Shown: piece by piece, positions 39,295 through 60,702 of the stretch
Layout of the letters: each line of letters begins with the position of its first letter
How positions within the stretch are numbered: the first letter of the stretch is position 1
DNA from: Allomuricauda sp. M10
Lineage (GTDB): Bacteria; Bacteroidota; Bacteroidia; Flavobacteriales; Flavobacteriaceae
Direction of reading: 5' to 3'
NCBI RefSeq assembly: GCF_020782875.1
Contig: NZ_JAJGBN010000001.1
Location: 62,001-126,000 of the forward strand
Length of the DNA stretch: 64,000 nt
Made by a program: the position numbers and the translations under genes
The notes under the pieces: generated by a model
What the model was told of the DNA's origin: nothing
The model's database searches: none
The model's input: the letters and a program-made list of their open reading frames with translations, nothing else

Positions 39295-39299
39295 CAATA

Positions 39300-39390
39300 A
39301 GTTGATAGTTCATAGTTGATGGTGTAAAAAGGATTTTGATAGAACCAAATCCAATAACTGACAACTGATAACTGAACACTGAAAACTGAT
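39300..39390. repeat. heptamer array pair, rpsE-rpmD gap
   Basis: Three consecutive units of AGTT(G/C)AT at 39300-39320 are answered by five consecutive units of (A/C)ACTGAN at 39356-39390. The two sets are inverted relative to each other, giving an imperfect palindrome with about 35 bases between. The array ends 3 bases before the rpmD start codon. Confidence 0.8.
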
Positions 39391-39393
39391 AAA

Positions 39394-50630: not shown

Positions 50631-51089
50631 TCATAACTGTCCGGCCGAACCAAGGTTCAGTGATCGGTCACTATCATGGCACATTCGCATAATTTCACAA
50701 TGGTAATATTTTCTGATTTCAGAGAGGTTCTCATTGCCTAACATGCTTTTGGATCTCTCGAATTCCTGATGGATAAAATTATGGGCATCAATGGAATTAA
50801 GGCTCCTTACGGTAGAATCCAAGGAATTATGATATCTTTTGAGGGAAGCATCGACCTTTAAGGTACTCCAATCCCAGCTATTGTTGGGATGATTCGCAAT
50901 GGATTTGAAATCCTGTGGAAAATCATCATGGGAAATGCAGTCCTGGTATTTTGCGGAATAATTTGTTGAGATTGTTTTGTTGATGCTTTTTGAGTCATCA
51001 ACCTTGCCAATGGCACGAAAAGCATTCATGCTTCCCAAAACGGCGAAAGCACTTGCAAGCAGCATGGATGAAAATAACAACTTTTTCAT
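50631..51089 (-). CDS. hypothetical exported protein
   Basis: 152 residues with a signal peptide (MKKLLFSSMLLASAFAVLGS). The mature chain is helical in character, rich in S, N, H and D, with cysteines at about 50, 130 and 137. No family recognised. The gene ends 3 bases into the shared terminator region and stands alone. Confidence 0.65.
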   Translation of the reverse strand: MKKLLFSSMLLASAFAVLGSMNAFRAIGKVDDSKSINKTISTNYSAKYQDCISHDDFPQDFKSIANHPNNSWDWSTLKVDASLKRYHNSLDSTVRSLNSIDAHNFIHQEFERSKSMLGNENLSEIRKYYHCEIMRMCHDSDRSLNLGSAGQL

Positions 51090-51265
51090 ATGTAGGAAAA
51101 ATCTTAATACAAATGTAATTAATATTTTTTTTCTTTCATCGATTTATGTGCTTAAAATGTTCGAAATACACAATTTTTAAACATTTGATAAACAAAGGGT
51201 TGTAAAATTTTGTTTTTTGATAATCCTAAATAGGAAGGACCAAATCCACCTGTGTGTAGTCCTTT

Positions 51266-51303
51266 TTTGTAAGTGGAAAATACGGACTAAAACACTAGAT
51301 TTG
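51266..51303 (+). promoter_or_regulatory. promoter of the arginine-deiminase-like gene
   Basis: TAGATTTG (51296-51303) is an exact TAnnTTTG match. A TTTG lies at 51266-51269, 26 bases upstream, longer than the usual 17-23. Leaves a leader of about 65 bases. Confidence 0.55.
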
Positions 51304-51314
51304 CCATAGAATTT

Positions 51315-51341
51315 ATGCGGGAAAACCCCAATGTGTTTTAA
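51315..51341 (+). CDS. possible 8-codon leader peptide
   Basis: ATG to TAA gives MRENPNVF inside the leader of the following gene, 33 bases before its start. Chance occurrence is quite possible; it is listed because of its place between a good promoter and an arginine-family gene. Confidence 0.2.
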   Translation: MRENPNVF

Positions 51342-51373
51342 AAAAGTGCAATGGGACATAAAATTCGCAGACT

Positions 51374-52288
51374 ATGATAAGATTGAATATCGTTGATGAG
51401 ACCAGTCCGTTGAGATCGGTTATTTTGGGCACTGCACAAAGTAGTGGTCCTATCCCATCTTTAGAGGAAGCCTATGATCCAAAATCCATGGAGCATATAT
51501 TGGCAGGTACCTATCCCAAAGAGGAAGATATGATCAAGGAAATGGATGCTTTTGCCCAGGTTTTCCACAAATATGGTGTTCAAGTTTTCAGACCAGAGGT
51601 ATTAACGGATTGCAACCAGATTTTCGCTCGCGATATTGCATTTGTTATTGAGGATAAATTGTTTCATTCCAATATCTTACCGGATAGGGAAAGAGAATTT
51701 GAAGCCATTCATGAGGTATTGGAAATGATCGACCCCAATAATGTTATCAGGCCACCACAAGAAGTACATATAGAAGGTGGGGACGTGATGCCATGGAACG
51801 ACCATATCTTCATAGGGACATATACCGCTCCGGACTACAAGAATTACATTACAGCACGCACCAATAGGGAAGCTGTGGAGTTTATCCGTGATATGTTTCC
51901 CCATAAAACCGTAAAATCATTTGAGCTAAGAAAATCCAATACCAATCCTAGAGAGAATGCCCTTCATTTGGATTGTTGTTTTCAACCTGTAGGAAAGGAT
52001 AAGGCCATTTTGTACAAAAACGGATTTTTGGTAGCGGAGGAGTACGAATATTTGGTGGATTATTTCGGTCCGGATAATATCTTTGAAATCGATAAGGAAG
52101 AAATGTACCAAATGTTCAGCAATGTATTTTCCATTTCTCCCGAAGTGGTGGTTTCCGAAAGGAATTTTACCCGTTTGAACCATTGGTTGCGCGATCAGGG
52201 TTTTACCGTTGAGGAAATTCCCTATGCCGAGATAGCTAAACAAGAAGGTCTGTTGCGTTGTAGCACCATGCCCTTGATCAGAGAATAA
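51374..52288 (+). CDS. arginine-deiminase / dimethylarginine-hydrolase family protein
   Basis: 304-residue amidinohydrolase-fold (GME superfamily) enzyme. Substrate-binding acidic motif EGGDVMPWNDH, central histidine in ALHLDCCF and the nucleophilic cysteine in GLLRCSTMPL near the C-terminus are present. Expected to hydrolyse the guanidino group of arginine or a methylated arginine to citrulline. The adjacent ctlX gene, which acts on citrulline, supports an arginine to citrulline to ornithine route. The choice between arginine and dimethylarginine cannot be made by eye. Confidence 0.82.
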   Translation: MIRLNIVDETSPLRSVILGTAQSSGPIPSLEEAYDPKSMEHILAGTYPKEEDMIKEMDAFAQVFHKYGVQVFRPEVLTDCNQIFARDIAFVIEDKLFHSNILPDREREFEAIHEVLEMIDPNNVIRPPQEVHIEGGDVMPWNDHIFIGTYTAPDYKNYITARTNREAVEFIRDMFPHKTVKSFELRKSNTNPRENALHLDCCFQPVGKDKAILYKNGFLVAEEYEYLVDYFGPDNIFEIDKEEMYQMFSNVFSISPEVVVSERNFTRLNHWLRDQGFTVEEIPYAEIAKQEGLLRCSTMPLIRE

Positions 52289-52336
52289 ATGAATACTACT
52301 TCCTGCTGCCACAGGTAAGCCAAATACATACAACAG

Positions 52337-53281
52337 TTGAGAGCACAGATTACCAACACCATTCTTATGGTTCGTCCCGTGAATTTTCGGATGAACGAAC
52401 AAACGGCGGTCAATAATTATTTTCAGGAAGACCCGCATTTAAAAAATACCGTAATCAACCAACGGGCGCAGGAAGAGTTCGACCAGTTTGTAAAAGTACT
52501 GCGGGAGCATGGCGTTAATGTCATTGTGGTAGAGGATACTTTGGAGCGAGACACCCCGGATTCCATTTTTCCGAACAATTGGGTTTCCTTTCATGAAAGC
52601 GGAACCGTTTGTATTTACCCCATGTTTGCCTTAAACCGCAGAAAGGAACGTCGCGAGGACATACTAGATCTTTTGGAGGAAGAAGGATTTGTGATCAATG
52701 AGGTTATGGATTATACGGTTGCTGAAGAGGATGATATCTTTTTGGAGGGAACAGGGAGCATTCTCATGGACAGGGTCAACCAAAAGGCCTATTGTGCCCT
52801 TTCGGAACGGGCCCATGAGGAACTGTTTATTGAGTTCTGTGAGGATTTTGATTGTTTTCCGGTCATTTTCCATGCCAACCAGTCTGTTGATGGCAAACGC
52901 CTTCCCATTTATCACACCAATGTGATGATGGCCTTGGCAGAGACTTTTGCGGTGATTTGTTTGGATTCCATTGACGACAAAAAGGAACGCAAGAACGTGG
53001 TGGACCACCTTAAAATGGATGGAAGGGAGATCATTTCCATTACGGAGGAACAAATGAACCATTTTGCGGGTAACATGTTACAAGTTATCGGCGCGAATGA
53101 CCAACGTTATATGGTCATGAGTACCCAAGCATACAAAAGCCTTAGCGATGCACAGATCAAGGCCATTGAAAAACACGGTCCCATCATCCACAGTTCTTTG
53201 GATACCATAGAGCTTTGCGGTGGTGGTAGTGCCCGTTGCATGATGGCAGAAGTGTTTTTACCCAAAACCAATTTACAATAA
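52337..53281 (+). CDS. ctlX: citrulline hydrolase CtlX-type protein
   Basis: 314 residues, starting at TTG 52337 (reads RAQITNTILMVRPVNF after Met), since no ATG precedes the conserved N-terminus. GME-superfamily motifs: TPDSIFPNNWVSFH, LEGTGSILMDR, the histidine in YHTNVMMALA and the cysteine in GGGSARCMMAE. CtlX of Francisella turns citrulline into ornithine, CO2 and ammonia. The last codons and the stop lie inside a heptamer array. Confidence 0.85.
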   Translation: MRAQITNTILMVRPVNFRMNEQTAVNNYFQEDPHLKNTVINQRAQEEFDQFVKVLREHGVNVIVVEDTLERDTPDSIFPNNWVSFHESGTVCIYPMFALNRRKERREDILDLLEEEGFVINEVMDYTVAEEDDIFLEGTGSILMDRVNQKAYCALSERAHEELFIEFCEDFDCFPVIFHANQSVDGKRLPIYHTNVMMALAETFAVICLDSIDDKKERKNVVDHLKMDGREIISITEEQMNHFAGNMLQVIGANDQRYMVMSTQAYKSLSDAQIKAIEKHGPIIHSSLDTIELCGGGSARCMMAEVFLPKTNLQ

Positions 53282-53445
53282 TCAATTATCAGTGTTCAAT
53301 GGAGTGGATTCATTTGAGCAGTCATATAGGCCAAGTTCATAAATTCTGAAGACATTCAAGTCATATTAAACGACCCTATAATACTTTCTCATTGCTTATT
53401 GAAAATTGTTTATTGCTCATTGTTCATTGATAATTGAACATTGAA
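53269..53445. repeat. heptamer arrays in the ctlX-Pr6Pr gap
   Basis: Five units in strict phase (CAATTTA, CAATAAT and so on, form CAATNNN with one CAGTGTT) cover 53269-53303 and include the last ctlX codons and stop. After an 86-base spacer, eight units in strict phase (form NATTGNN, for example CATTGCT and TATTGAA) cover 53390-53445. The two sets are inverted copies of one another. Confidence 0.85.
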
Positions 53446-53461
53446 TTCATTATCTTCGATC

Positions 53462-54079
53462 ATGCGCAGAAATTTTGAAATATTGGGTTTTACCATGTCG
53501 TGTTTTGCCGTGGTCACCCAATTGATTTTGATGCTTCATAACCGTGAAGCGAGCCTAGGCGAGACTTTGTTGCGCTTTGTTGGTTATTTTACCATCCTCA
53601 CCAATACTTTGGTTGCTTTATACTTTGCCGTTCGGGTGTTTGGTCTTAAACGGCGTATGTGGGTTTTATTCCATAGAAGGGCGACGCCCATGGCACTTAC
53701 CGCGTTTATTTTGGTGGTTTGTTTGGTGTACCAAGTGGCTTTGCGGAAGATTTGGAACCCTACCGGTTTGCAAATGATCGTGGATGAACTTTTGCATACC
53801 ATCGTCCCCATTTTCATGTATGTATATTGGTTAATGTTCCAGGCTCGAAACCTTGTTACTTGGCAAGACCTTCGTGCTTGGTTAATGTATCCTGTTCTCT
53901 ATTTATTGTGGATATTGTTTAGGGGATATTATTCCGGTTTTTATCCATACCCGTTTTTAAACATGGACCAGTTGGGCACAGGAACTTTGGTATTGAATAT
54001 TTCCATGGTGTTAGCCTTGATGCTTTTGGTCATGGCAGCCCTTTATTTCCTCGGAAGACTCCTCCGACCGAAACAATGA
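53462..54079 (+). CDS. Pr6Pr-type integral membrane protein
   Basis: 205 residues with six hydrophobic helices, the arrangement of the Pr6Pr family (FAR-17a/AIG1-like) of unknown function. Conserved-looking features are FTILTNTLVALYFA, the DELLHTIVPIFMYVYW segment and YPVLYLLWILFRGYYSGFYPYPFL (in parts). The ATG at 53462 is preferred over a TTG seven codons earlier that lies in the heptamer array. A TATCTTCG octamer just before the ATG may be a -7 element, implying an almost leaderless message. Arrays flank it on both sides. Confidence 0.8.
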   Translation: MRRNFEILGFTMSCFAVVTQLILMLHNREASLGETLLRFVGYFTILTNTLVALYFAVRVFGLKRRMWVLFHRRATPMALTAFILVVCLVYQVALRKIWNPTGLQMIVDELLHTIVPIFMYVYWLMFQARNLVTWQDLRAWLMYPVLYLLWILFRGYYSGFYPYPFLNMDQLGTGTLVLNISMVLALMLLVMAALYFLGRLLRPKQ

Positions 54080-54134
54080 ACAGTTTACAATGGGCAGAAC
54101 AATGTACAATGAGCAATAAACAGAAAACAATTTC
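54074..54134. repeat. heptamer array after the Pr6Pr gene
   Basis: Units of form CAATNNN or CAGNNNN (CAATGAA, CAGTTTA, CAATGGG and others) run from 54074, taking in the stop codon, to 54134, with one 5-base unit. Orientation is opposite to the array at 53390-53445 before the gene. Confidence 0.8.
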
Positions 54135-54152
54135 AAATTGTTGTCTCTCTCT

Positions 54153-54178
54153 GTCATTTTGAGTGAAACGAAAAATCT
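54153..54178. repeat. dispersed repeat segment, copy 1
   Basis: Twenty-six bases starting GTCATTTTGAGTGAAACG and ending AAAATCT, found again exactly at 57908-57933 and with an insertion at 54415-54463. Lies directly after a heptamer array here and at 57.9 kb. Confidence 0.8.
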
Positions 54179-54188
54179 CTAGGGGTTT

Positions 54189-54320
54189 GACACGAATTGC
54201 ACCAATTTTCACGAATGTATTATTGCCATTTCGAACGTCCCGATAGTTATCGGGAGTGAGAAATCTAAACCCCTTTGGGATTTCTCAATCGCTGCGTTGC
54301 ACCTCATTTCGAAATGACAC
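54189..54320. repeat. 132-bp hairpin repeat, copy A
   Basis: Begins GACACGAATTGCACC and ends GAAATGACAC. Near-identical to 54477-54608 (same length, a handful of substitutions). It contains the palindrome CCCGATAGTTATCGGG and opposing ends GAGAAATCT / GATTTCTC and CATTTCGAA / TTCGAAATG, so the right two-thirds fold into a long hairpin. The type is familiar from flavobacterial intergenic regions. Confidence 0.85.
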
Positions 54321-54334
54321 TTTCCGCCATGCTG

Positions 54335-54352
54335 TCCCGATAGCTATCGGGA
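54335..54352. repeat. 18-bp perfect palindrome
   Basis: TCCCGATAGCTATCGGGA, enclosed by ATGCTG and CAGCAT in inverted order. Related to the palindrome inside the 132-bp repeats. Confidence 0.8.
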
Positions 54353-54382
54353 TTGTTTCAGCATCTTGTTGTTTTGGATGGG

Positions 54383-54403
54383 ATTCCGTGTCAGGCACGG
54401 AAT
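54383..54403. repeat. inverted repeat ATTCCGTG / CACGGAAT
   Basis: Eight-base arms with a 5-base loop; part of the repeat-rich gap. No gene attached to it. Confidence 0.7.
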
Positions 54404-54414
54404 GATGTTGCCTT

Positions 54415-54463
54415 GTCATTTTGAGTTATGTCCTGAGCGTAGTGAAGGAGCTACGAAAAATCT
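54415..54463. repeat. dispersed repeat segment, copy 2 with insertion
   Basis: Starts GTCATTTTGAG and ends CGAAAAATCT as in copy 1, but the middle carries TCCTGAGCGTAGTGAAGGA, a word often met in repeats of many bacteria. Stands 14 bases before the second 132-bp hairpin, just as copy 1 stands 10 bases before the first. Confidence 0.75.
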
Positions 54464-54476
54464 CTTTTAGGGGGTT

Positions 54477-54608
54477 GACACGAATTGCACCAATTTTCAC
54501 GAATACATTATTGTCATTTCGAACGTCCCGATAGTTATCGGGAGTGAGAAATCTAAACCTGTTTGGGATTTCTCAATCACTGCGTTGCACCTCATTTCGA
54601 AATGACAC
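54477..54608. repeat. 132-bp hairpin repeat, copy B
   Basis: Direct repeat of 54189-54320, 288 bases downstream. Same hairpin and palindrome. The interval 54609-54736 after it shows nothing further until the next gene. Confidence 0.85.
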
Positions 54609-54736
54609 AACTTACCTTTCCGATGCTGATGGGGTTATTACGGAAAAGCGTAAGTAATTTCCCTTGAAAAATGTATATTGAACTGATATTTAATATGTTA
54701 TTTGATTAGTTGCTGTTAACCTTAACAAGAGTTATT

Positions 54737-55432
54737 ATGATTTATAAAGTATTTGAACAAGATGCTAATACACTATTGGAAAAACCGGAGACAGGAATAG
54801 GTTATCAAATAATATCGGCATTTCAGTATGAAAGACATATAATGAGAAAGTTTGTCGTTTATAATACTAATCTGGCCGTTGAGTTGGATTCAGAATTTAT
54901 TTATCATAAAAATCAGGTTGTACAGAGGGGATACAACCTAATGCTCGGTAAATCTGATGTGATAATGCTCGAAACCAATTCCATCAAAGTTTTGAAAAAA
55001 ATTGACGTTGAAAATAAAATCGATTATACAAATAACTTAAATAATAAAGGCCGATATTCTGGAGGTAAGGGTGCAATTGATAACCCTGAAGAACGTTCCA
55101 ATGGTACAGAAAGTTTTGTTAGGATTTCTGCTTATGAAGATGACCGAAGAGTAGATATGGTAAATAAGAAATTAAAACCTGGTTCATTTGCTACAACCAA
55201 AGTAGATTATTTAAAGTGTGTAATGTTAAATGATAATCCAATAGATAGGTATGCCTTGCCAAATGATGAGGAGATTAAATGGGCATTTCATATAAATCCA
55301 AAACTAGGTGACATTTTACAAAGAGGAGTTGTTCAACCAGCTTTTGGACATATTGGTGGTGGTATTGAAGCATACTTTAAGAGTGGTACTTCAGATGGTA
55401 CTTTAATATCGAAGAGACCATATGGCAAATAG
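54737..55432 (+). CDS. possible TNT-like NAD-glycohydrolase-fold toxin
   Basis: 231 residues from ATG 54737 (MIYKVFEQDAN). The C-terminal third reads PGSFATTKVDY, then DRYALPNDEEIKWAF, PKLGDILQRG and VVQPAFGHIGGGIEAYF. This order (G-x-F-T, R-x-ALP, P-x-G, APxFGxxGGG-Q/E) resembles the TNT (PF14021) domain of mycobacterial CpnT and many polymorphic toxins. The N-terminal 90 residues share a motif with the downstream small protein. No signal peptide. Low G+C and a repeat-rich neighbourhood suggest acquired DNA. The TNT reading is by eye and uncertain. Confidence 0.5.
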   Translation: MIYKVFEQDANTLLEKPETGIGYQIISAFQYERHIMRKFVVYNTNLAVELDSEFIYHKNQVVQRGYNLMLGKSDVIMLETNSIKVLKKIDVENKIDYTNNLNNKGRYSGGKGAIDNPEERSNGTESFVRISAYEDDRRVDMVNKKLKPGSFATTKVDYLKCVMLNDNPIDRYALPNDEEIKWAFHINPKLGDILQRGVVQPAFGHIGGGIEAYFKSGTSDGTLISKRPYGK

Positions 55433-55643
55433 GAAAGTTTTAAAATTATCCGAAAAATATGCGACATATTTGGAAGAGCTTCCAGAGCAAGGAATGGGTT
55501 ATCAATTGGTAGATATTAAATTGAAGGATGGTAGAGTTTTGTTAAGCAGAGTAGTGTTGAATTGTATTTTTTTAAAACTCAAGGATGATGAGGATATAAA
55601 AAATGATGATATTATGGACCTTAAGATATGTGATGATTATTAA
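55422..55643 (+). CDS. small partner protein, possibly immunity
   Basis: 73 residues, overlapping the previous gene by 11 bases. The segment LPEQGMGYQLVDIKLKDG parallels the previous protein's KPETGIGYQIISAFQY near its N-terminus, so the two share a small domain. Acidic C-terminus. By the layout of toxin-immunity pairs it could be the antidote; equally both may be parts of one complex. Confidence 0.5.
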   Translation: MANRKVLKLSEKYATYLEELPEQGMGYQLVDIKLKDGRVLLSRVVLNCIFLKLKDDEDIKNDDIMDLKICDDY

Positions 55644-55703
55644 GTGAAATTGAAGTACCCAGTTATGTTTTGTAAAGAATTATGTCATTAATAGCTTTTA
55701 AAC

Positions 55704-55889
55704 TTATTTTCTTAACCCTTTCACCAACCCTCTAAGCGCAGCCACCACTTGTTGCACTTCTTTGCGGTCAAACGTATCTTCTTCTAAATAAAATAACATC
55801 TCTATACCATAATCCAGAACTTTTGCTAGTTCTTCAGGAGTGCCGTAGCTATCTTCAATCCAGTTTAATAAAACCTCATCATGTATCAT
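55704..55889 (-). CDS. small acidic protein beside an XRE regulator
   Basis: 61 residues starting MIHDEVLLNWIED and ending in a basic LRGLVKGLRK. Helical by composition. Family not recognised. Divergent from the regulator gene, with its start 15 bases from a perfect palindrome, so it is probably controlled by that regulator. Confidence 0.55.
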   Translation of the reverse strand: MIHDEVLLNWIEDSYGTPEELAKVLDYGIEMLFYLEEDTFDRKEVQQVVAALRGLVKGLRK

Positions 55890-55903
55890 ATCAATCCAAA
55901 ACT

Positions 55904-55917
55904 TGTCATATATGACA
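55904..55917. promoter_or_regulatory. operator-like palindrome O1
   Basis: TGTCATATATGACA, a perfect 14-base palindrome between the two divergent genes. Same half-sites as O2 at 55951-55964. Confidence 0.65.
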
Positions 55918-55950
55918 TTAACTACGGTAAATATAAACCTTTTCTTGACT

Positions 55951-55964
55951 TGTCAAATATGGCA
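55951..55964. promoter_or_regulatory. operator-like palindrome O2
   Basis: TGTCA-AATA-TGGCA, 47 bases from O1 and overlapping the proposed ATG of the regulator gene. The shared form TGTCA-N4-TGRCA suggests cooperative autoregulation. Confidence 0.55.
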
Positions 55965-56195
55965 AGTATGGAAAAATTGGAAATTCTGAGGAAAATAGGA
56001 GAGAACATTAAAGAAGCGCGTCTCAAAAAAGGCTATACCCAAGTGGATCTAGTGGGTAAAATCGAGGCTAAAATTGACACTACAAACATTTCAAGAATCG
56101 AAAAGGGAAGAACCAATGCCACGATCATAACATTATATCGCATCAGCCAAGCCCTGGATATTCCATTATCTGAAATCTGCAAGCTAGAAGCTTAA
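55959..56195 (+). CDS. XRE-family helix-turn-helix regulator
   Basis: 78 residues from ATG 55959 (or 75 from 55968). Classical HTH_3 domain: IGENIKEARLKKGYTQVDLVGK, then ISRIEKGRTNATIITLYRISQALDIPL (in parts), with the recognition helix in the second part. An upstream ATG at 55881 would extend it through the operators and is rejected. It resembles small repressors that control nuclease or toxin modules. Its last codons (KLEA and stop) are written in heptamer units. Confidence 0.85.
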   Translation: MASMEKLEILRKIGENIKEARLKKGYTQVDLVGKIEAKIDTTNISRIEKGRTNATIITLYRISQALDIPLSEICKLEA

Positions 56196-56223
56196 AGCTT
56201 ATAACTAAAAACTCACCACTAAA
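56182..56223. repeat. heptamer array through the end of the regulator gene
   Basis: Six units in exact phase: AGCTAGA, AGCTTAA and four more of form NNCTNAN. The second contains the stop codon. Ends 2 bases before the stop of the convergent gene. Confidence 0.75.
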
Positions 56224-56225
56224 AC

Positions 56226-57743
56226 CTACTGCTCCTCTTCCGAAACCGTAAAACCACGGATGGCTTGGTTGGGTTCCATGATGTTATAACCCTTCCAAAA
56301 CTCGGGGTCATAGTTGGGCATATAGGTAGCCCGTACGGTCTTGTCCTCCTTGTAATTGGTAAAAGTGCCTTCGGGAATTTCTTCTTGATTAAAGACCACT
56401 AATTCCCATTTATTGGTCATGTTCATGCGAAAATCGATGTTCAACAACAGCTCGTTCTGCTTGCGGCGACCCTTTACGTGCTTGTTCTTTTCCACCACTT
56501 TTAAAGGTCGGTCCACGGCAAAGTAGCGTCCTTCGGCAAAATCCATAAACTGAAGATCATATTTACCACTGGGCAATTTGGCAAAGCGCATGGTGCCCTT
56601 GTATACATTTTCACGGTAGGTAATGCCCAACAATCTAAAATTGCGCAAACGCTTGGTGTTCTCAAAGTCGAGGCGCATAATGGCAAAATCCTCAATATTG
56701 ATATACAGTCGGCCCCTAAAATCGGCACTACTGCGCTTGGGTTCAAAGTCGATGACGTACACCCCGGCATCGTTGATGTCCGCGTAGCCCACCAGTTTAA
56801 ACTCGTAGCGGTTGGTTTTTTCAACCAGGTCCAGTTTGGTGTTTTCCTTGTAGTAGAGTTGGCTCAACATTTCACGAAGTTCGCCCCGTTGGCTGTCCGT
56901 CAATCCAGAAATGCTATCCTTTTGCATTTGGGCCTTCACCTTTTTCATCTGCTCCACACGCTCGTCATCAAACGTATCGATGATGGAGTCCACCTCTATC
57001 TTTTCACTAAAAATCCCCGATTTTATCTTGAGGTACGAACCCTGTTTCACGTTCTTTTTAAAAATCTCCTCCATGTGTTCGGCCAATTCCTCAAAAGAGC
57101 TTACGTTTCTTTTATCGAAAAGGTCCGCCGCCTTAAAAATGTCCAGTTTATACTTGGTGTGGTGCTTGTACAAATCACCCAAACTTTCGGTATAGTGATG
57201 AGCGTTTTTGGGAATGGAGTTGGCAATACTGTCCATAAGTTCCTTGTTCAGTTCCTTGATGGACGATTTTTCAAACCCAAAATCCACTTTTTGCATATTG
57301 GCCAGTTCGGAGGTTCGAAGGAAAAAGCGTTGCTTTATAGGATCTTTGTTCACGTTCTGGGGGATACGCTCTTTCATTTTCTCGATGATGTCATCCACCT
57401 CCAGTTCCTTGTCGAACACGTATACCCCACTCAGTTCAATGGCTTTGGAATTAATCAAAATGGTGCTGTCCTGCAATTGTTCCAAGGAGAAGCCTTTTTT
57501 TTCATACCCCATGGATGTAACATAAATAGAATCGGGTAAAGTGGCACCTGCATCCAACACAAAACTGAATCGGCCTTCCTCATTGGTGATCACGCCTTGG
57601 TACTCCCCATATTGCACGGTAGCATAGGGAATGCCTTTTTGTGTCTTGGCATCTACCAACCGGGAGCTTACGGTCTGTGCCGAGAGGGGCAAGCCTATGA
57701 AAAGGATAAATAGTAAATGGATCAGTGTTTTATTGATTGACAT
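56226..57743 (-). CDS. exported protein with carboxypeptidase-regulatory-like domain
   Basis: 505 residues starting at MSINKTLIHLLF (57743), giving a signal peptide that ends LSAQ. Residues about 22-100 form a CarboxypepD_reg-like beta domain (SRLVDAKTQKGIPYATVQYGEYQG). A long helical middle and a beta-rich end (RLYINIEDFAIMRLDFENTKRL, in parts) follow, as in flavobacterial cell-surface proteins of this type. Longer upstream reading through a leader without family residues is discarded. Function unknown. Confidence 0.8.
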   Translation of the reverse strand: MSINKTLIHLLFILFIGLPLSAQTVSSRLVDAKTQKGIPYATVQYGEYQGVITNEEGRFSFVLDAGATLPDSIYVTSMGYEKKGFSLEQLQDSTILINSKAIELSGVYVFDKELEVDDIIEKMKERIPQNVNKDPIKQRFFLRTSELANMQKVDFGFEKSSIKELNKELMDSIANSIPKNAHHYTESLGDLYKHHTKYKLDIFKAADLFDKRNVSSFEELAEHMEEIFKKNVKQGSYLKIKSGIFSEKIEVDSIIDTFDDERVEQMKKVKAQMQKDSISGLTDSQRGELREMLSQLYYKENTKLDLVEKTNRYEFKLVGYADINDAGVYVIDFEPKRSSADFRGRLYINIEDFAIMRLDFENTKRLRNFRLLGITYRENVYKGTMRFAKLPSGKYDLQFMDFAEGRYFAVDRPLKVVEKNKHVKGRRKQNELLLNIDFRMNMTNKWELVVFNQEEIPEGTFTNYKEDKTVRATYMPNYDPEFWKGYNIMEPNQAIRGFTVSEEEQ

Positions 57744-57852
57744 AGCTTTTTTTAAAGGTTCTACCATAAAGACACCTTTTGGGGGCCAAAGGTTGCTTCG
57801 GTGATTAGACGAGCTTTTGGGGAATTTGTGACAAAGGTCGGTAAACATTGGT

Positions 57853-57910
57853 CAATTTTCAATGGACAGCAATCAATTAACACTGTGGTCATTGCTTATT
57901 GCCCATTGTC
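57853..57910. repeat. heptamer hairpin upstream of the exported protein gene
   Basis: CAATTTT, CAATGGA and three more units (57853-57887) are followed by CATTGCT, TATTGCC and CATTGTC (57890-57910), inverted, so the whole folds back on itself with almost no loop. The 26-base dispersed segment begins inside its last unit. Confidence 0.75.
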
Positions 57911-57933
57911 ATTTTGAGTGAAACGAAAAATCT
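57908..57933. repeat. dispersed repeat segment, copy 3
   Basis: Identical to 54153-54178. Overlaps the end of the heptamer hairpin by 3 bases. Confidence 0.8.
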
Positions 57934-57945
57934 TTTTTATGTTTT

Positions 57946-58037
57946 GACACGAATTACACGAATTACACCAATTTACTCGAATGACTTGTCTGGGTGTCAT
58001 TTCGAACGTCCCGATAGTTATCGGGAGTGAGAAATCT
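57946..58037. repeat. partial copy C of the hairpin repeat
   Basis: Begins GACACGAATTACACG, with an extra tandem ACACGAATT unit, continues through CCCGATAGTTATCGGG to GAGAAATCT, and stops there. The right arm found in copies A and B is missing; the repeat abuts the stop codon of the gene at 58037. Confidence 0.8.
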
Positions 58038-58462
58038 CATAAGTCATCGATAGAAGTGGGCAAATTATCCGCGCGGTGGTCCAATAGTTTTCGGAAGAAT
58101 TTTTGAACGGCCATACTATCCGAACGCACCTTGATGAAATGATGGTCCATAAAAATGGAATAGACCGCCATATCGCCTTTATAAAGATTCAATTTATAGT
58201 AAGGTATGATTAATCCAAATGTTTCCAACAACGATCGGAACCGTATAATGATGCCCTTGGGACGCAATTCAATATTGCAGGTGTCCAAGTTGTTGTCCAA
58301 GATCAACAGGTTATGGATTTCCACACTGGCTTCGGTTATAAAAAGTTTGGGACTGCCAATGCCGCCCATGGCAAAGCGTTCCCTTAAGGGAAAGGGTTTG
58401 CCCACAGCCTCGTCTATTTTTTTGGTGATGTTTTTATCTGAGTATGAAACGTTCAACAGCAT
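58037..58462 (-). CDS. hypothetical protein, PH-like by eye
   Basis: 141 residues, soluble. The order of short hydrophobic strands (NIELRPKGIIIRFRSLL, LIIPYYKLNLYKG, YSIFMDHHFIKVRS) followed by a C-terminal helix (AVQKFFRKLLDH) is that of small PH/YdbT-like bacterial domains; this is a weak structural guess. Starts 2 bases after the VOC gene, so the two are an operon. Confidence 0.6.
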   Translation of the reverse strand: MLLNVSYSDKNITKKIDEAVGKPFPLRERFAMGGIGSPKLFITEASVEIHNLLILDNNLDTCNIELRPKGIIIRFRSLLETFGLIIPYYKLNLYKGDMAVYSIFMDHHFIKVRSDSMAVQKFFRKLLDHRADNLPTSIDDL

Positions 58463-58464
58463 CT

Positions 58465-58818
58465 TTACAGTTTTTGTCCAAACCGCAACAGGTTTCCTTC
58501 GCCATCAAGGGCGGAAAACTCCCGAAGACCCCAAGGCTTATTGCCCAAAGGTCCGTTAGGATGTACCACGCCGGTTTTTTTCAGTTCGGCATAAAGTCCA
58601 TCCACATCGGTCACATGGATGTAGCAGCTGGTGTTTTCTGGAAAAATCTTATCGTTGCATTTGGCAATATGTAGTTCAATTTGATCCCTACCGATCACGG
58701 CATAATGGTCATCTACCCAGCCCTGCTTGTCAAAGCCGAATTTCTCTTGATAAAAAGCGACCGATTTTCGTACATCAAGGGCAAAGAGTACCGGAACGGC
58801 GCGTTGTAAATGTTCCAT
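58465..58818 (-). CDS. VOC-family (glyoxalase/bleomycin-resistance-like) protein
   Basis: 117 residues forming one VOC module pair. Start VPVLFALDVRKSVAFYQEKFGF, then the histidine of IELHIAKC and the closing glutamate-type strand SALDGEGNLLRFG. Such proteins bind metal plus small ligands or sequester bleomycin-like drugs; the actual ligand is unknown. Confidence 0.85.
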   Translation of the reverse strand: MEHLQRAVPVLFALDVRKSVAFYQEKFGFDKQGWVDDHYAVIGRDQIELHIAKCNDKIFPENTSCYIHVTDVDGLYAELKKTGVVHPNGPLGNKPWGLREFSALDGEGNLLRFGQKL

Positions 58819-58870
58819 CTGCTAGTTTTTTCTAAAATTACAGTTTCTAGGATGTCAACACTAGTCCAGA

Positions 58871-58903
58871 TTGCCAAAAAAGGGCAAAAAATATGTAGTT
58901 TTG
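58871..58903 (+). promoter_or_regulatory. argS promoter
   Basis: TTG at 58871-58873, 22 bases, then TAGTTTTG at 58896-58903, an exact -7 match. The spacer contains an inverted pair TTGCC / GGCAA. Confidence 0.7.
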
Positions 58904-58904
58904 C

Positions 58905-58918
58905 AGGCTGAAAAGCCT
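58905..58918 (+). other. hairpin at the expected 5' end of the argS transcript
   Basis: AGGCT and AGCCT arms with a GAAA tetraloop, beginning 2 bases after the -7 element and ending 5 bases before the ATG. Resembles the hairpin after the rpsL promoter. Confidence 0.5.
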
Positions 58919-58923
58919 TTTAG

Positions 58924-60702
58924 ATGAGTTTGCAGAACGATTTGACCCAAAAAGTGATCGAGGCGGTAAAACAACTGTATCAAGTTGACCTGCCTGCGGT
59001 GGAATTTCAACCTACCCGAAAGGATTTTGAAGGGGATATTACCGTGGTGGTATTCCCCATGTTACGCTTTGTTAAGGGAAATCCGGTTCAAATCGGCACA
59101 CAGATCGGGGAATATCTGCAACAACATGTGGAGGAAGTGGCCAAATGCAATGTGGTCCAAGGCTTTTTGAACATTGTGATAGCGGAAAGCTATTATCTGA
59201 ATTTCTTCAACAGCATCAAGGATGAGGTGGATTTCGGTTATGTAAAAACACCATCACCGGGGGCTACCATGGTGGAATATTCATCCCCCAATACCAACAA
59301 ACCGCTGCACTTGGGGCATATCCGAAACAACTTATTAGGGTATTCGGTTGCCGAAATTTTGAAGGCTTCTGGTAAAAAAGTATACAAAGCCCAGATCATT
59401 AATGATCGTGGTATCCACATCTGTAAAAGTATGCTGGCCTGGCAGAAATTCGGGAAAGGGGAAACCCCAGAATCCTCTGGAATGAAAGGCGATCACTTGG
59501 TAGGGAAATACTATGTGGCTTTTGATAAGGCCTATAAGGAACAGATTGCGGAATTGGTAGCTGGAGGAATGCCTAAGGAAAAAGTTGAAAAGGAAGCTCC
59601 TATCTTGTTGGAAGCCCAAGAAATGCTACGTAAATGGGAGGCTGGAGATTCAGAAGTGGTTTCCTTGTGGAAAACAATGAACGCTTGGGTATATGCAGGT
59701 TTTGATACCACATACAAAAACCTTGGGGTTGATTTTGATAAACTGTACTACGAGAGCGATACCTACTTGTTGGGTCGCGATGTAGTAAAGGATGGACTTG
59801 AAAAAGGAGTCTTTTTTAAAAAAGAAGATGGCAGTGTGTGGATCGACCTGACCGAAGATGGCTTGGACGAGAAAATCGTATTGCGTTCCGATGGTACTGC
59901 GGTATATATGACCCAGGATATTGGCACGGCTCTTCAAAGAGTAACCGATTTTCCTGACATCAAAGGAATGGTGTACACGGTAGGTAACGAGCAGGATTAT
60001 CACTTTAAGGTCCTTTTCCTCATCTTGAAAAAGTTGGGATATAGTTGGGCCGAAAAATTGTACCACCTCAGTTATGGGATGGTGGATCTACCAAGCGGTA
60101 AAATGAAGAGCAGGGAAGGTACTGTGGTAGATGCCGATGATCTGATTCAAAACATGGAAGAGACCGCCGAGACCATTTCCAAGGAACTGGGCAAATTGGA
60201 TGGTTATTCCGAAGAGGAAAAACAAAAACTGTATAAAACCATAGGTTTGGGGGCTTTGAAATATTACATCCTAAAAGTAGATCCCAAAAAACGTATCCTG
60301 TTCAACCCGGAAGAATCCGTGGATTTTCAAGGGAACACGGGTCCGTTCATCCAATATACCTATGCTAGGATCCAATCCATTCTAAGAAAGGCGGGTTTTG
60401 ACGTCTCGACTGCGCTCGACGTGACAATGGAGCTTCATGAAAAGGAAAAGGAACTTTTGAAACAGATCCAATTGTTCCCAGAAACGATTCAACTTGCGGC
60501 CGAAAATTACAGTCCAGCGCTTATTGCCAACTATACCTACGATCTGGTAAAGGAGTTCAACTCGTTTTACCAACAAGTGTCCATTCTCGGGGAAACAGAC
60601 GAGCAAAAGAAAAACTTCAGGGTGCAGTTGTCCAAGAAAGTAGGGGAGGTGATTCAATCTGCCTTTAGACTTTTGGGGATTGAAGTACCCGAACGAATGT
60701 AA
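58924..60702 (+). CDS. argS: arginyl-tRNA synthetase
   Basis: 592-residue class I synthetase. HIGH motif is H129-L-G-H132 in NTNKPLHLGHIRNN; the KMSKS equivalent is K393-M-K-S-R397 in PSGKMKSREG; the C-terminal anticodon-binding DALR domain follows. At residues 493-501 (DVSTALDVT) the DNA is a palindromic word like the dispersed repeats of this clade, in frame and without harm to the frame. Own promoter with a tight leader. Confidence 0.98.
   Translation: MSLQNDLTQKVIEAVKQLYQVDLPAVEFQPTRKDFEGDITVVVFPMLRFVKGNPVQIGTQIGEYLQQHVEEVAKCNVVQGFLNIVIAESYYLNFFNSIKDEVDFGYVKTPSPGATMVEYSSPNTNKPLHLGHIRNNLLGYSVAEILKASGKKVYKAQIINDRGIHICKSMLAWQKFGKGETPESSGMKGDHLVGKYYVAFDKAYKEQIAELVAGGMPKEKVEKEAPILLEAQEMLRKWEAGDSEVVSLWKTMNAWVYAGFDTTYKNLGVDFDKLYYESDTYLLGRDVVKDGLEKGVFFKKEDGSVWIDLTEDGLDEKIVLRSDGTAVYMTQDIGTALQRVTDFPDIKGMVYTVGNEQDYHFKVLFLILKKLGYSWAEKLYHLSYGMVDLPSGKMKSREGTVVDADDLIQNMEETAETISKELGKLDGYSEEEKQKLYKTIGLGALKYYILKVDPKKRILFNPEESVDFQGNTGPFIQYTYARIQSILRKAGFDVSTALDVTMELHEKEKELLKQIQLFPETIQLAAENYSPALIANYTYDLVKEFNSFYQQVSILGETDEQKKNFRVQLSKKVGEVIQSAFRLLGIEVPERM

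What the first reader, a model, noticed from the sequence alone, without database searches (positions are those of the whole stretch)
53269..53445. Thirteen strictly phased heptamers between ctlX and a Pr6Pr gene, overlapping the ctlX stop
Seen: CAATNNN x5 including the last ctlX codons and stop, and NATTGNN x8 ending 16 bases before the next ATG. Positions 2-5 are fixed while others drift, so this is a word constraint, not simple slippage. The array invading the C-terminus of an enzyme argues that it grows or inserts at stop codons.
Basis: partly seen in the sequence, partly recalled or inferred. Interest (0 to 1): 0.8.

Follow-up and report, generated by a model that had tools for sequence, protein, structure and literature searches.

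The report
Outward-facing seven-base arrays at gene edges
Gaps between genes in this marine bacterium hold rows of seven-letter DNA units that start at gene edges and run outward, sometimes swallowing a stop codon, in a layout already reported in other bacteria with a different word; they are likely the residue of a stepwise DNA-copying habit rather than a binding site.

Summary
The repeats are real. The ctlX/Pr6Pr gap holds two facing arrays, (CAATNNN) over the ctlX stop and (NNNATTG) before Pr6Pr. The own genome has 98 three-unit matches against 2 for the reversed word. Of 116 arrays from 12 genomes none lies inside a called gene; the CAAT strand's 5' end abuts stops (48/67 against 10/59 for the 3' end) and starts (18/48 against 0/56), and 17 of 17 opposite-direction neighbours face each other. 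CtlX is three residues longer than in its closest relative; in RuvC 6 of 31 genomes show a CAAT unit across the stop. After three orthologous stops, 32 of 70 other genomes carry 7-periodic sequence (about 3.5 expected), often of other words: against a CAAT-specific site. Outside arrays of one repeated unit, neighbouring NNN are no more alike than chance: against plain slippage. PMC4692102 describes the same layout for GGGAATC arrays (Xanthomonas) and GGGGAYT (Nostoc) and discusses G-quadruplexes, which CAATNNN cannot form, so these cannot be the general reason. My preferred, untested mechanism is 4-base-primed template switching in 7-base steps. New variant of a known kind; moderate interest.

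The parts
52367..53281 (+). ctlX, 304 aa; the last four codons before the stop (T-N-L-Q) and the stop lie in or at the array
   Evidence: NF046062 citrull_CtlX E 2.9e-135; C-termini of 80 orthologues
53269..53300 (+). left array, CAATNNN x5 in phase (4 exact, one CAGT), overlapping the ctlX stop
53279..53281 (+). ctlX stop TAA formed by array sequence (CAA-TAA)
53301..53390 (.). spacer between the facing arrays
   Evidence: no Rfam match at gathering score in 51000-60000
53391..53443 (-). right array, eight exact CAATNNN units on the minus strand (ATTG on plus), 5' end towards Pr6Pr
53462..54079 (+). Pr6Pr family membrane protein, ends in CAA-TGA
   Evidence: NF038065 E 1.5e-31; sequence
54074..54131 (+). 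array after Pr6Pr, CAATNNN runs of 2 and 4, overlapping the Pr6Pr stop
57853..57877 (+). left arm of a second facing pair (3 exact units with one gap)
57891..57908 (-). right arm of the second facing pair (3 exact units)

Best explanation
These are facing arrays of seven-base units that begin at gene edges and run outward, and they are likely written by short-homology template switching: a growing DNA 3' end that finishes in the word CAAT would re-pair with a CAAT of some other unit and copy the next seven bases. Shown: the 7-base step, the fixed word with free NNN, the outward polarity at stops and starts, the facing pairs, the absence of four-unit arrays from gene bodies, the invasion of stop codons, the retention of most sites with changed units, and other words at orthologous sites. 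Inferred: that the word is only the pairing foothold, that each new NNN is drawn from the pool of existing units, and that the outward polarity comes from 5'-to-3' extension, with coding sequence limiting the array on its other side. Predicted: no dedicated binding protein; when another word takes over at a site, the array is rebuilt with that word.
For: Polarity and facing pairs: (116 arrays; stop edge 48/67 v 10/59, start edge 18/48 v 0/56, 17 facing pairs, 0 back-to-back, 1 same direction). Units are not neighbour copies in most arrays: 6 of 254 adjacent NNN identical in arrays without a triplet used three times (about 5.5% expected from the pool); within-pool shuffles show no excess similarity in any of five sets filtered in that way. 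Two-unit strings shared between different arrays of the own genome are in excess, 16 v 8.1 expected, P 0.014 uncorrected, one of five sets tested. Possible seeds at CAA-stop: 12/48 v 10/310. Unit turnover with the word kept: CAAT mismatch 9.3% and 11.2% against NNN 32.5% and 29.9% in the two directions. Other words but the same period at orthologous stops: 32 of 70 (words). Published arrays with another word share the layout (PMC4692102, sections 10, 13, 14 read).
Against: With the one-unit (perfect) arrays left in, adjacent NNN are identical in 61 of 333 cases, well above the pool expectation, so neighbour copying does happen in some arrays; many congener arrays listed are perfect and look like plain slippage. 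The shared two-unit excess is absent in four of five sets. If seeds were random in the gap, arrays should not sit a median 2.5 bases from the stop between same-direction genes; I have no direct evidence for why they do. Which array end grows could not be settled: degenerate in-phase units occur at both ends; one length difference of seven units is next to the gene (L132) and another is at the far end (L125). The CAAT word with free NNN recurs in unrelated families in the capped list, which a specific reader would explain more easily. No enzyme has been identified or searched for.
Confidence: 0.35

Rival explanations
1. A multi-site platform for a protein that reads CAAT once per seven bases (double-stranded DNA, or single strands through an OB-fold such as a cold shock protein) and ignores NNN.
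For: CAAT changes less than NNN between G000 and G059; exact run lengths of non-perfect arrays are mostly 4-5 (4:37, 5:46, 6:5, 7:2, 8:2, orthologous arrays counted separately); CAATNNN four-unit matches occur in 60 of 156 genera of the class. Heptamer binding by a cold shock protein is cited in PMC4679880 (passage).
Against: The same gene stop in congeners carries other words (GGATGTC, GGGTGTC, AGATGTC, CAGTTAT, ACCCTTA). In homologous clusters found without choosing on the array, CAAT and NNN seem to decay at similar rates (my reading by eye of the alignments; few changes). In same-direction gaps the sense strand carries CAAT 54 times and ATTG 46 times, so one RNA reader does not fit.
Confidence: 0.25
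2. Ordinary replication slippage in 7-base steps (the view credited to Mrazek 2007 in PMC4679880 and PMC4692102), followed by mutation.
For: Perfect or nearly perfect arrays with a site-specific heptamer in the listed part of G034, G032, G027, G051; adjacent identical NNN in 61 of 333 cases when no array is left out; whole-unit length differences between orthologous arrays.
Against: In arrays not made of one repeated unit, neighbouring units are not more alike than random units, although conditioning on an intact CAAT should leave NNN alike too; outward polarity and facing pairs are not predicted.
Confidence: 0.17
3. Scars of broken-end repair: an unknown polymerase adds heptads to both 3' ends in an intergenic break and the ends are joined, a telomerase-like writing inside chromosomes.
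For: Predicts facing outward arrays at gene edges; arms of one gap need not share a word (G059 counterpart of L131: CAGANNT and CAGTNNN).
Against: No enzyme known or searched for; arrays persist at 17 of 22 orthologous sites held rather than appearing as one-off scars; the one spacer examined is part of a dispersed repeat with three other copies that by eye lack arrays.
Confidence: 0.12
4. RNA hairpins or terminators formed by the facing arms.
For: The ctlX/Pr6Pr gap folds at -39.8 kcal/mol, z -2.5, 3 of 200 shuffles as good. In Xanthomonas the quadruplex-capable arrays coincide with transcript starts or ends more often than the control arrays (PMC4692102 section 15).
Against: Only 17 facing pairs among 116 arrays; arms differ in NNN; 13 of 115 lie between convergent genes; no Rfam match.
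Confidence: 0.08

Closest known systems
GGGAATC / (GGGANTN)n heptameric repeats of Xanthomonas and GGGGA(C/T)T of Nostoc (PLoS One 2015, PMC4692102; sections 10, 13-16 read, other passages by search)
   Same: Seven-base unit with fixed positions 1-4 and 6 and drifting rest; 89-93% intergenic; most often four units; convergent pairs (70 and 75 cases); close to the gene on the 5' side (28 v 160 nt); after stops on the coding strand and before starts on the non-coding strand; overlap with stops; 7-8% between divergent genes; 83% retained in the same gene context between two Xanthomonas species.
   Different: Word is G-rich and forms G-quadruplexes in vitro; CAATNNN has no G-tract. The paper selected arrays by that word; here congeners show other words at the same site.
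TAACTGA direct repeats of Beggiatoaceae, Cyanobacteria and five Bacteroidetes (MacGregor 2015, PMC4679880; abstract, sections 7 and 12, passages)
   Same: Heptamer, mostly intergenic, at start codons in the orientation that corresponds to outward TCAGTTA; seen also immediately after a stop in reverse; TCAGTTA is one letter from TCAATTA. The own window has a similar array at 39357-39388.
   Different: One fixed heptamer, anchored mainly to starts (132+15 of 170 sets); sets overlapping an upstream gene end mostly run towards the downstream start (13 of 14); proposed as a translational regulator site.
Cyanobacterial short tandemly repeated repetitive (STRR) heptanucleotides (recalled; tandem heptanucleotides of Calothrix are mentioned in a passage of PMC4692102)
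   Same: Heptanucleotide repeats.
   Different: Described as tandem repeats; polarity was not compared here.
Long simple sequence repeats with 7-base units (Mrazek 2007, known only through the two papers above)
   Same: Period of seven.
   Different: Explained there by polymerase slippage; most CAAT arrays here lack neighbour similarity.

Membership tests
Xanthomonas/Nostoc-type outward heptameric arrays | 7-base unit, part of the unit fixed, rest free | tested here: met
   CAAT fixed by choice of arrays, NNN varied
Xanthomonas/Nostoc-type outward heptameric arrays | Intergenic | tested here: met
   0 of 116 arrays of four or more inside a called gene (my own simple gene predictor); some three-unit matches do lie inside ORFs (L120, L124, L137)
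Xanthomonas/Nostoc-type outward heptameric arrays | Outward polarity from stops and starts | tested here: met
   48/67 v 10/59 and 18/48 v 0/56; ungapped runs 49/70 v 9/55 and 12/46 v 0/61; not significant in G033 alone
Xanthomonas/Nostoc-type outward heptameric arrays | Convergent pairs | tested here: met
   17 facing, 0 back-to-back, 1 same direction within 500 bases
Xanthomonas/Nostoc-type outward heptameric arrays | G-tracts able to form G-quadruplexes | tested here: not met
   no G-tract in CAATNNN; G makes up 33%, 14% and 20% of the three N positions
Xanthomonas/Nostoc-type outward heptameric arrays | Site retained between close species | tested here: met
   17 of 22 orthologous G059 sites held carry the same word and direction with at least 4 units (18 if the second L114 array, whose region keeps only one array, is counted); 5 of 27 G000 arrays had no region held
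TAACTGA repeats | exact TAACTGA heptamer | tested here: not met
   CAAT instead of CAGT in the ctlX arrays, apart from one CAGT unit; the 39357 array is close to it
Simple tandem repeats made by slippage | neighbouring units more alike than distant ones | tested here: inconclusive
   not met in arrays without a triplet used three times (6/254; five sets); met if the perfect arrays are included (61/333)
Sequence-specific protein-binding arrays | word kept at orthologous sites | tested here: inconclusive
   kept in most G000/G059 sites, other words in many congeners
Sequence-specific protein-binding arrays | a protein that binds | not testable with these tools
   needs pull-down or ChIP
Known structured RNA | Rfam match | tested here: not met
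   none at gathering score in 51000-60000

The most novel reading that the evidence does not exclude
One DNA-level writer, shared in principle by Bacteroidia, Xanthomonas, Nostoc and Beggiatoaceae, adds seven-base units to 3' ends at gene borders inside circular chromosomes, in the manner of a telomerase, with the word set by whatever foothold is in use; outward heptad arrays of all words are its trace, and it rewrites stop codons and protein tails as a by-product.
Probability: 0.1. Interest if true: 0.9.

Novelty: new variant of a known kind. Interest (0 to 1): 0.52.

Why it matters
The layout published for G-rich heptamers recurs here with an A/T-rich word, so G-quadruplex formation cannot be the general cause. 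Finding that the same gene edge keeps the seven-base period while the word differs between congeners moves the question from what binds the word to what writes in steps of seven, and makes it testable by resequencing. It also shows a route by which non-coding arrays add residues to conserved enzymes.

Tried and rejected
1) A first word-versus-NNN comparison (CAAT 52/720, NNN 134/481, two rows dropped as misaligned) was set aside because both genomes had been chosen for having arrays; it was redone with one-sided choice. In one search the one-sided choice still halves the expected CAAT change, so the neutral expectation is roughly half the NNN rate (about 15%); 9-11% observed over all arrays is only moderately below it. 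I therefore do not claim strong purifying selection on CAAT. One search also prints a subset called kept (CAAT 7.2% and 5.1%); the rows set aside there had more than 35% CAAT mismatch or mostly gaps, 4 of 22 and 3 of 23.

2) Cargo or mobile-element idea: the four-helix-bundle (IVP) gene between ruvC and the next gene (hemW, name recalled) lies between two arrays, and the L219 spacer is repeated elsewhere in G005. My script did not place the query in the three other copies and printed the whole loci; read by eye, they belong to an inverted-repeat element without arrays, so I take the spacer for an unrelated insertion.

3) Selection for stop codons in all frames: the fraction of units with a forward stop (0.58) is about that of units drawn from the base frequencies (0.60).

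4) General 7-base periodicity of all gaps: weak (lag 7 z 2.0; lags 6, 9 and 21 have z 3.0, 2.8 and 3.5; word-free scan 34 against 29 in shuffles), so arrays are a minority of gaps.

5) Polarity of other words: only small samples, GTTA 10 of 13, CAGT 6 of 8, AGTT 8 of 8, CCCT 8 of 12, CAAG 5 of 8, AACC 7 of 14; suggestive only. Words with fewer than 8 arrays were not ranked.

6) Literature: searches over the held open-access library; I saw no paper on CAATNNN arrays in the listed top results, which is not proof that none exists.

Full report
What is there. Between ctlX (52367-53281) and a Pr6Pr membrane-protein gene (53462-54079; names) lie two arrays of the same word in opposite orientation: CAATNNN after ctlX (53269-53300, four exact units and one CAGT) and its reverse complement before Pr6Pr (53391-53443, eight exact units), with a 90-base spacer. 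A third array follows Pr6Pr (54074-54131) and a second facing pair lies at 57853-57908. The window is G000:C1:62001-126000 of a 3.93 Mb genome; the nearest named relative by CtlX is Allomuricauda sediminis (97%), whose genome is G059, which I take to be G011 of the relatives because places coincide.

More than chance. Own genome: 61 four-unit matches against 0 for the reversed word, 98 three-unit matches against 2; A. sediminis 65 against 2. With gaps of 1-9 allowed on both sides the own genome gave 423 matches against 29 reversed. Among relatives 34 of 59 genomes searched (the own one counted) have a four-unit match, in 3 of 20 genera; in the class 95 of 295 genomes and 60 of 156 genera. The reversed word (TAACNNN) also forms runs in a number of these genomes, as part of other heptamers, so CAAT is not the only word.

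Anatomy. I collected 116 arrays with at least four exact units (one gap allowed) from 12 genomes; gene ends come from a simple codon-usage predictor of my own, so starts are approximate. None lies inside a called gene; some three-unit matches do lie inside ORFs (L120, L124, L137). Reading each array on its CAAT strand, the 5' end is the nearer one to a gene in 82 of 115 arrays with both flanks called; it lies within 15 bases of a stop in 48 of 67 cases and the 3' end in 10 of 59 (p 5e-10); for starts 18 of 48 and 0 of 56 (p 1e-7). Orthologous arrays are counted more than once there. The own genome alone gives 13/17 v 1/11 at stops (p 0.001) and 2/9 v 0/15 at starts (p 0.1); the genomes other than G000 and G059 together give 24/36 v 6/33 and 10/27 v 0/30. 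G033 (3/7 v 2/9) and G031 (5/6 v 1/4) are not significant by themselves. Within 500 bases, 17 neighbouring arrays face each other, none is back to back and one pair has the same direction. Arrays are rare between divergent genes, 2 of 115 against 40 of 192 background gaps. In same-direction gaps the CAAT strand is the sense strand in 54 and the antisense strand in 46, which suggests a DNA-level rather than a messenger-level feature.

Units. NNN is T, G or A at the first place (C 5%), mostly A at the second (66%; C 1%) and mixed at the third. Over all arrays adjacent NNN are identical in 61 of 333 cases, because some arrays repeat one unit; in arrays without a triplet used three times it is 6 of 254, against about 5.5% expected from the pool. 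In five genome sets filtered in that way there is no excess similarity between neighbours against shuffles. Exact run lengths of non-perfect arrays fall off sharply above five: 4:37, 5:46, 6:5, 7:2, 8:2 (orthologues counted separately).

Stop capture. The ctlX of the window ends FLPKTNLQ*; A. sediminis, which lacks the left array but has the right one, ends FLPKA*, three residues shorter; none of 80 orthologues has the TNLQ tail, though other tails of varied length occur without arrays. Two relatives (L035, L036) have ctlX beside Pr6Pr, judged by the shared start sequence, with no array. In 31 RuvC orthologues shown (G000 included) six end in Gln-stop, and in all six a CAAT spans that stop. 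Among array-abutted stops the last sense codon is CAA in 12 of 48, against 10 of 310 in background genes.

Evolution. Of 27 G000 arrays, 22 had an orthologous region held in G059; 17 of these carry the same word in the same direction with at least four units (an 18th, the second L114 array, shares a region in which only one array is kept). Choosing arrays in one genome only, CAAT mismatched at 38/407 and 49/439 positions and NNN at 88/271 and 89/298, with the flanks at 26% and 20%. Because exactness in the first genome removes about half of the expected CAAT changes, this is weaker evidence for constraint than it looks; in small homologous clusters found without choosing on arrays I see CAAT and NNN change at similar rates (read by eye, few events).

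The word differs between congeners. I looked at the 100 bases after the stop of three genes whose G000 copy carries an array: ruvC, a 2TM-domain histidine kinase gene, and rlmN (names). With G000 and G059 left out, one unmatched locus (L307) dropped and G003 not held for ruvC, 32 of 70 genome-sites exceed the 95% level of 270 control stops at period 7 (11/29, 12/20, 9/21), and 5 in all at periods 5, 6, 8 and 9 together. A rank test also finds period 8 slightly raised at two of the three sites (p 0.008 and 0.007), far less than period 7. The words differ: after the kinase gene they include GGATGTC, GGGTGTC, AGATGTC, CAGTTAT and ACCCATC/ACCCTTA; after rlmN CAAT units, AGGAGAC and CAAGTAC. Sister species are not independent, and in some rows the periodic stretch lies tens of bases from the stop. 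So the gene edge and the period recur while the word is exchanged.

Known relatives. PMC4692102 (PLoS One 2015; sections 10, 13, 14, 15, 16 read) describes for GGGAATC arrays of two Xanthomonas species, with a similar distribution around genes in Nostoc, the same features: positions 1-4 and 6 fixed, most often four units, convergent pairs, nearness to the gene on the 5' side, position after stops on the coding strand and before starts on the non-coding strand, overlap with stops, rarity between divergent genes, 83% retention. The authors show quadruplexes in vitro, saw transcripts start or stop more often at quadruplex-capable arrays than at control arrays, and could not identify a role in gene regulation. 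MacGregor 2015 (PMC4679880; abstract, sections 7 and 12, passages) describes TAACTGA repeats, mostly running up to start codons, which is the same outward polarity for TCAGTTA; however 13 of 14 sets that overlap an upstream gene end run towards the downstream start, unlike the rule here. CAATNNN has no G-tract, so quadruplexes cannot be the shared cause. I file the arrays as a variant of this kind, not as members of a quadruplex class.

Mechanism. Plain slippage does not give unlike neighbours or polarity; a CAAT-binding protein does not survive exchange of the word at the same site unless the protein changes too. Short-homology template switching needs a fixed foothold, leaves the three following bases to whichever unit is copied, runs only 5' to 3', and lets a new foothold replace the old. 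Everything in that sentence is inference. The main gaps are the tight abutment to stops, the undecided growing end, the perfect arrays of other congeners and the missing enzyme. I put it at 0.35, with a binding platform at 0.25.

Noticed in passing
window 39295-39391: Another facing heptad pair: AGTT(G/C)AT units right after one gene's stop and five ACTG units at 7-base spacing (39357-39388) ending five bases before the next ATG, close to the published TAACTGA repeat; the genes look like ribosomal proteins S5 and L30 (names recalled from the sequence, not tested).
   Followed up: partly
L127:2593-2949 and orthologues: A 23S_rRNA_IVP four-helix-bundle gene (PF05635) lies between ruvC and the next gene in several congeners, between the two arrays.
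   Followed up: partly
L132:2485-2630; L245: CAAT units run into a (CCCTAAA)n stretch, the heptamer known as the plant telomere repeat (name recalled), present in both species.
   Followed up: no
L331, L332, L333 (G005): Dispersed element with inverted ends (GTACCAGTGG...CCACTGGTAC, read by eye) and an inner TTGAGCGCAGTCGAAAGG stretch; a truncated copy sits in the ruvC gap of L219/L330.
   Followed up: partly
window 54140-54500: Intergenic repeats of the TGTCATTTCGA...GAGAAATCT and CCCGATAGCTATCGGG types downstream of the third array; similar stretches adjoin the far end of several CAAT arrays.
   Followed up: no
G034, G032, G027, G051: In the listed part, mostly perfect heptamer arrays, with different heptamers at different sites that share GTTA.
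   Followed up: no
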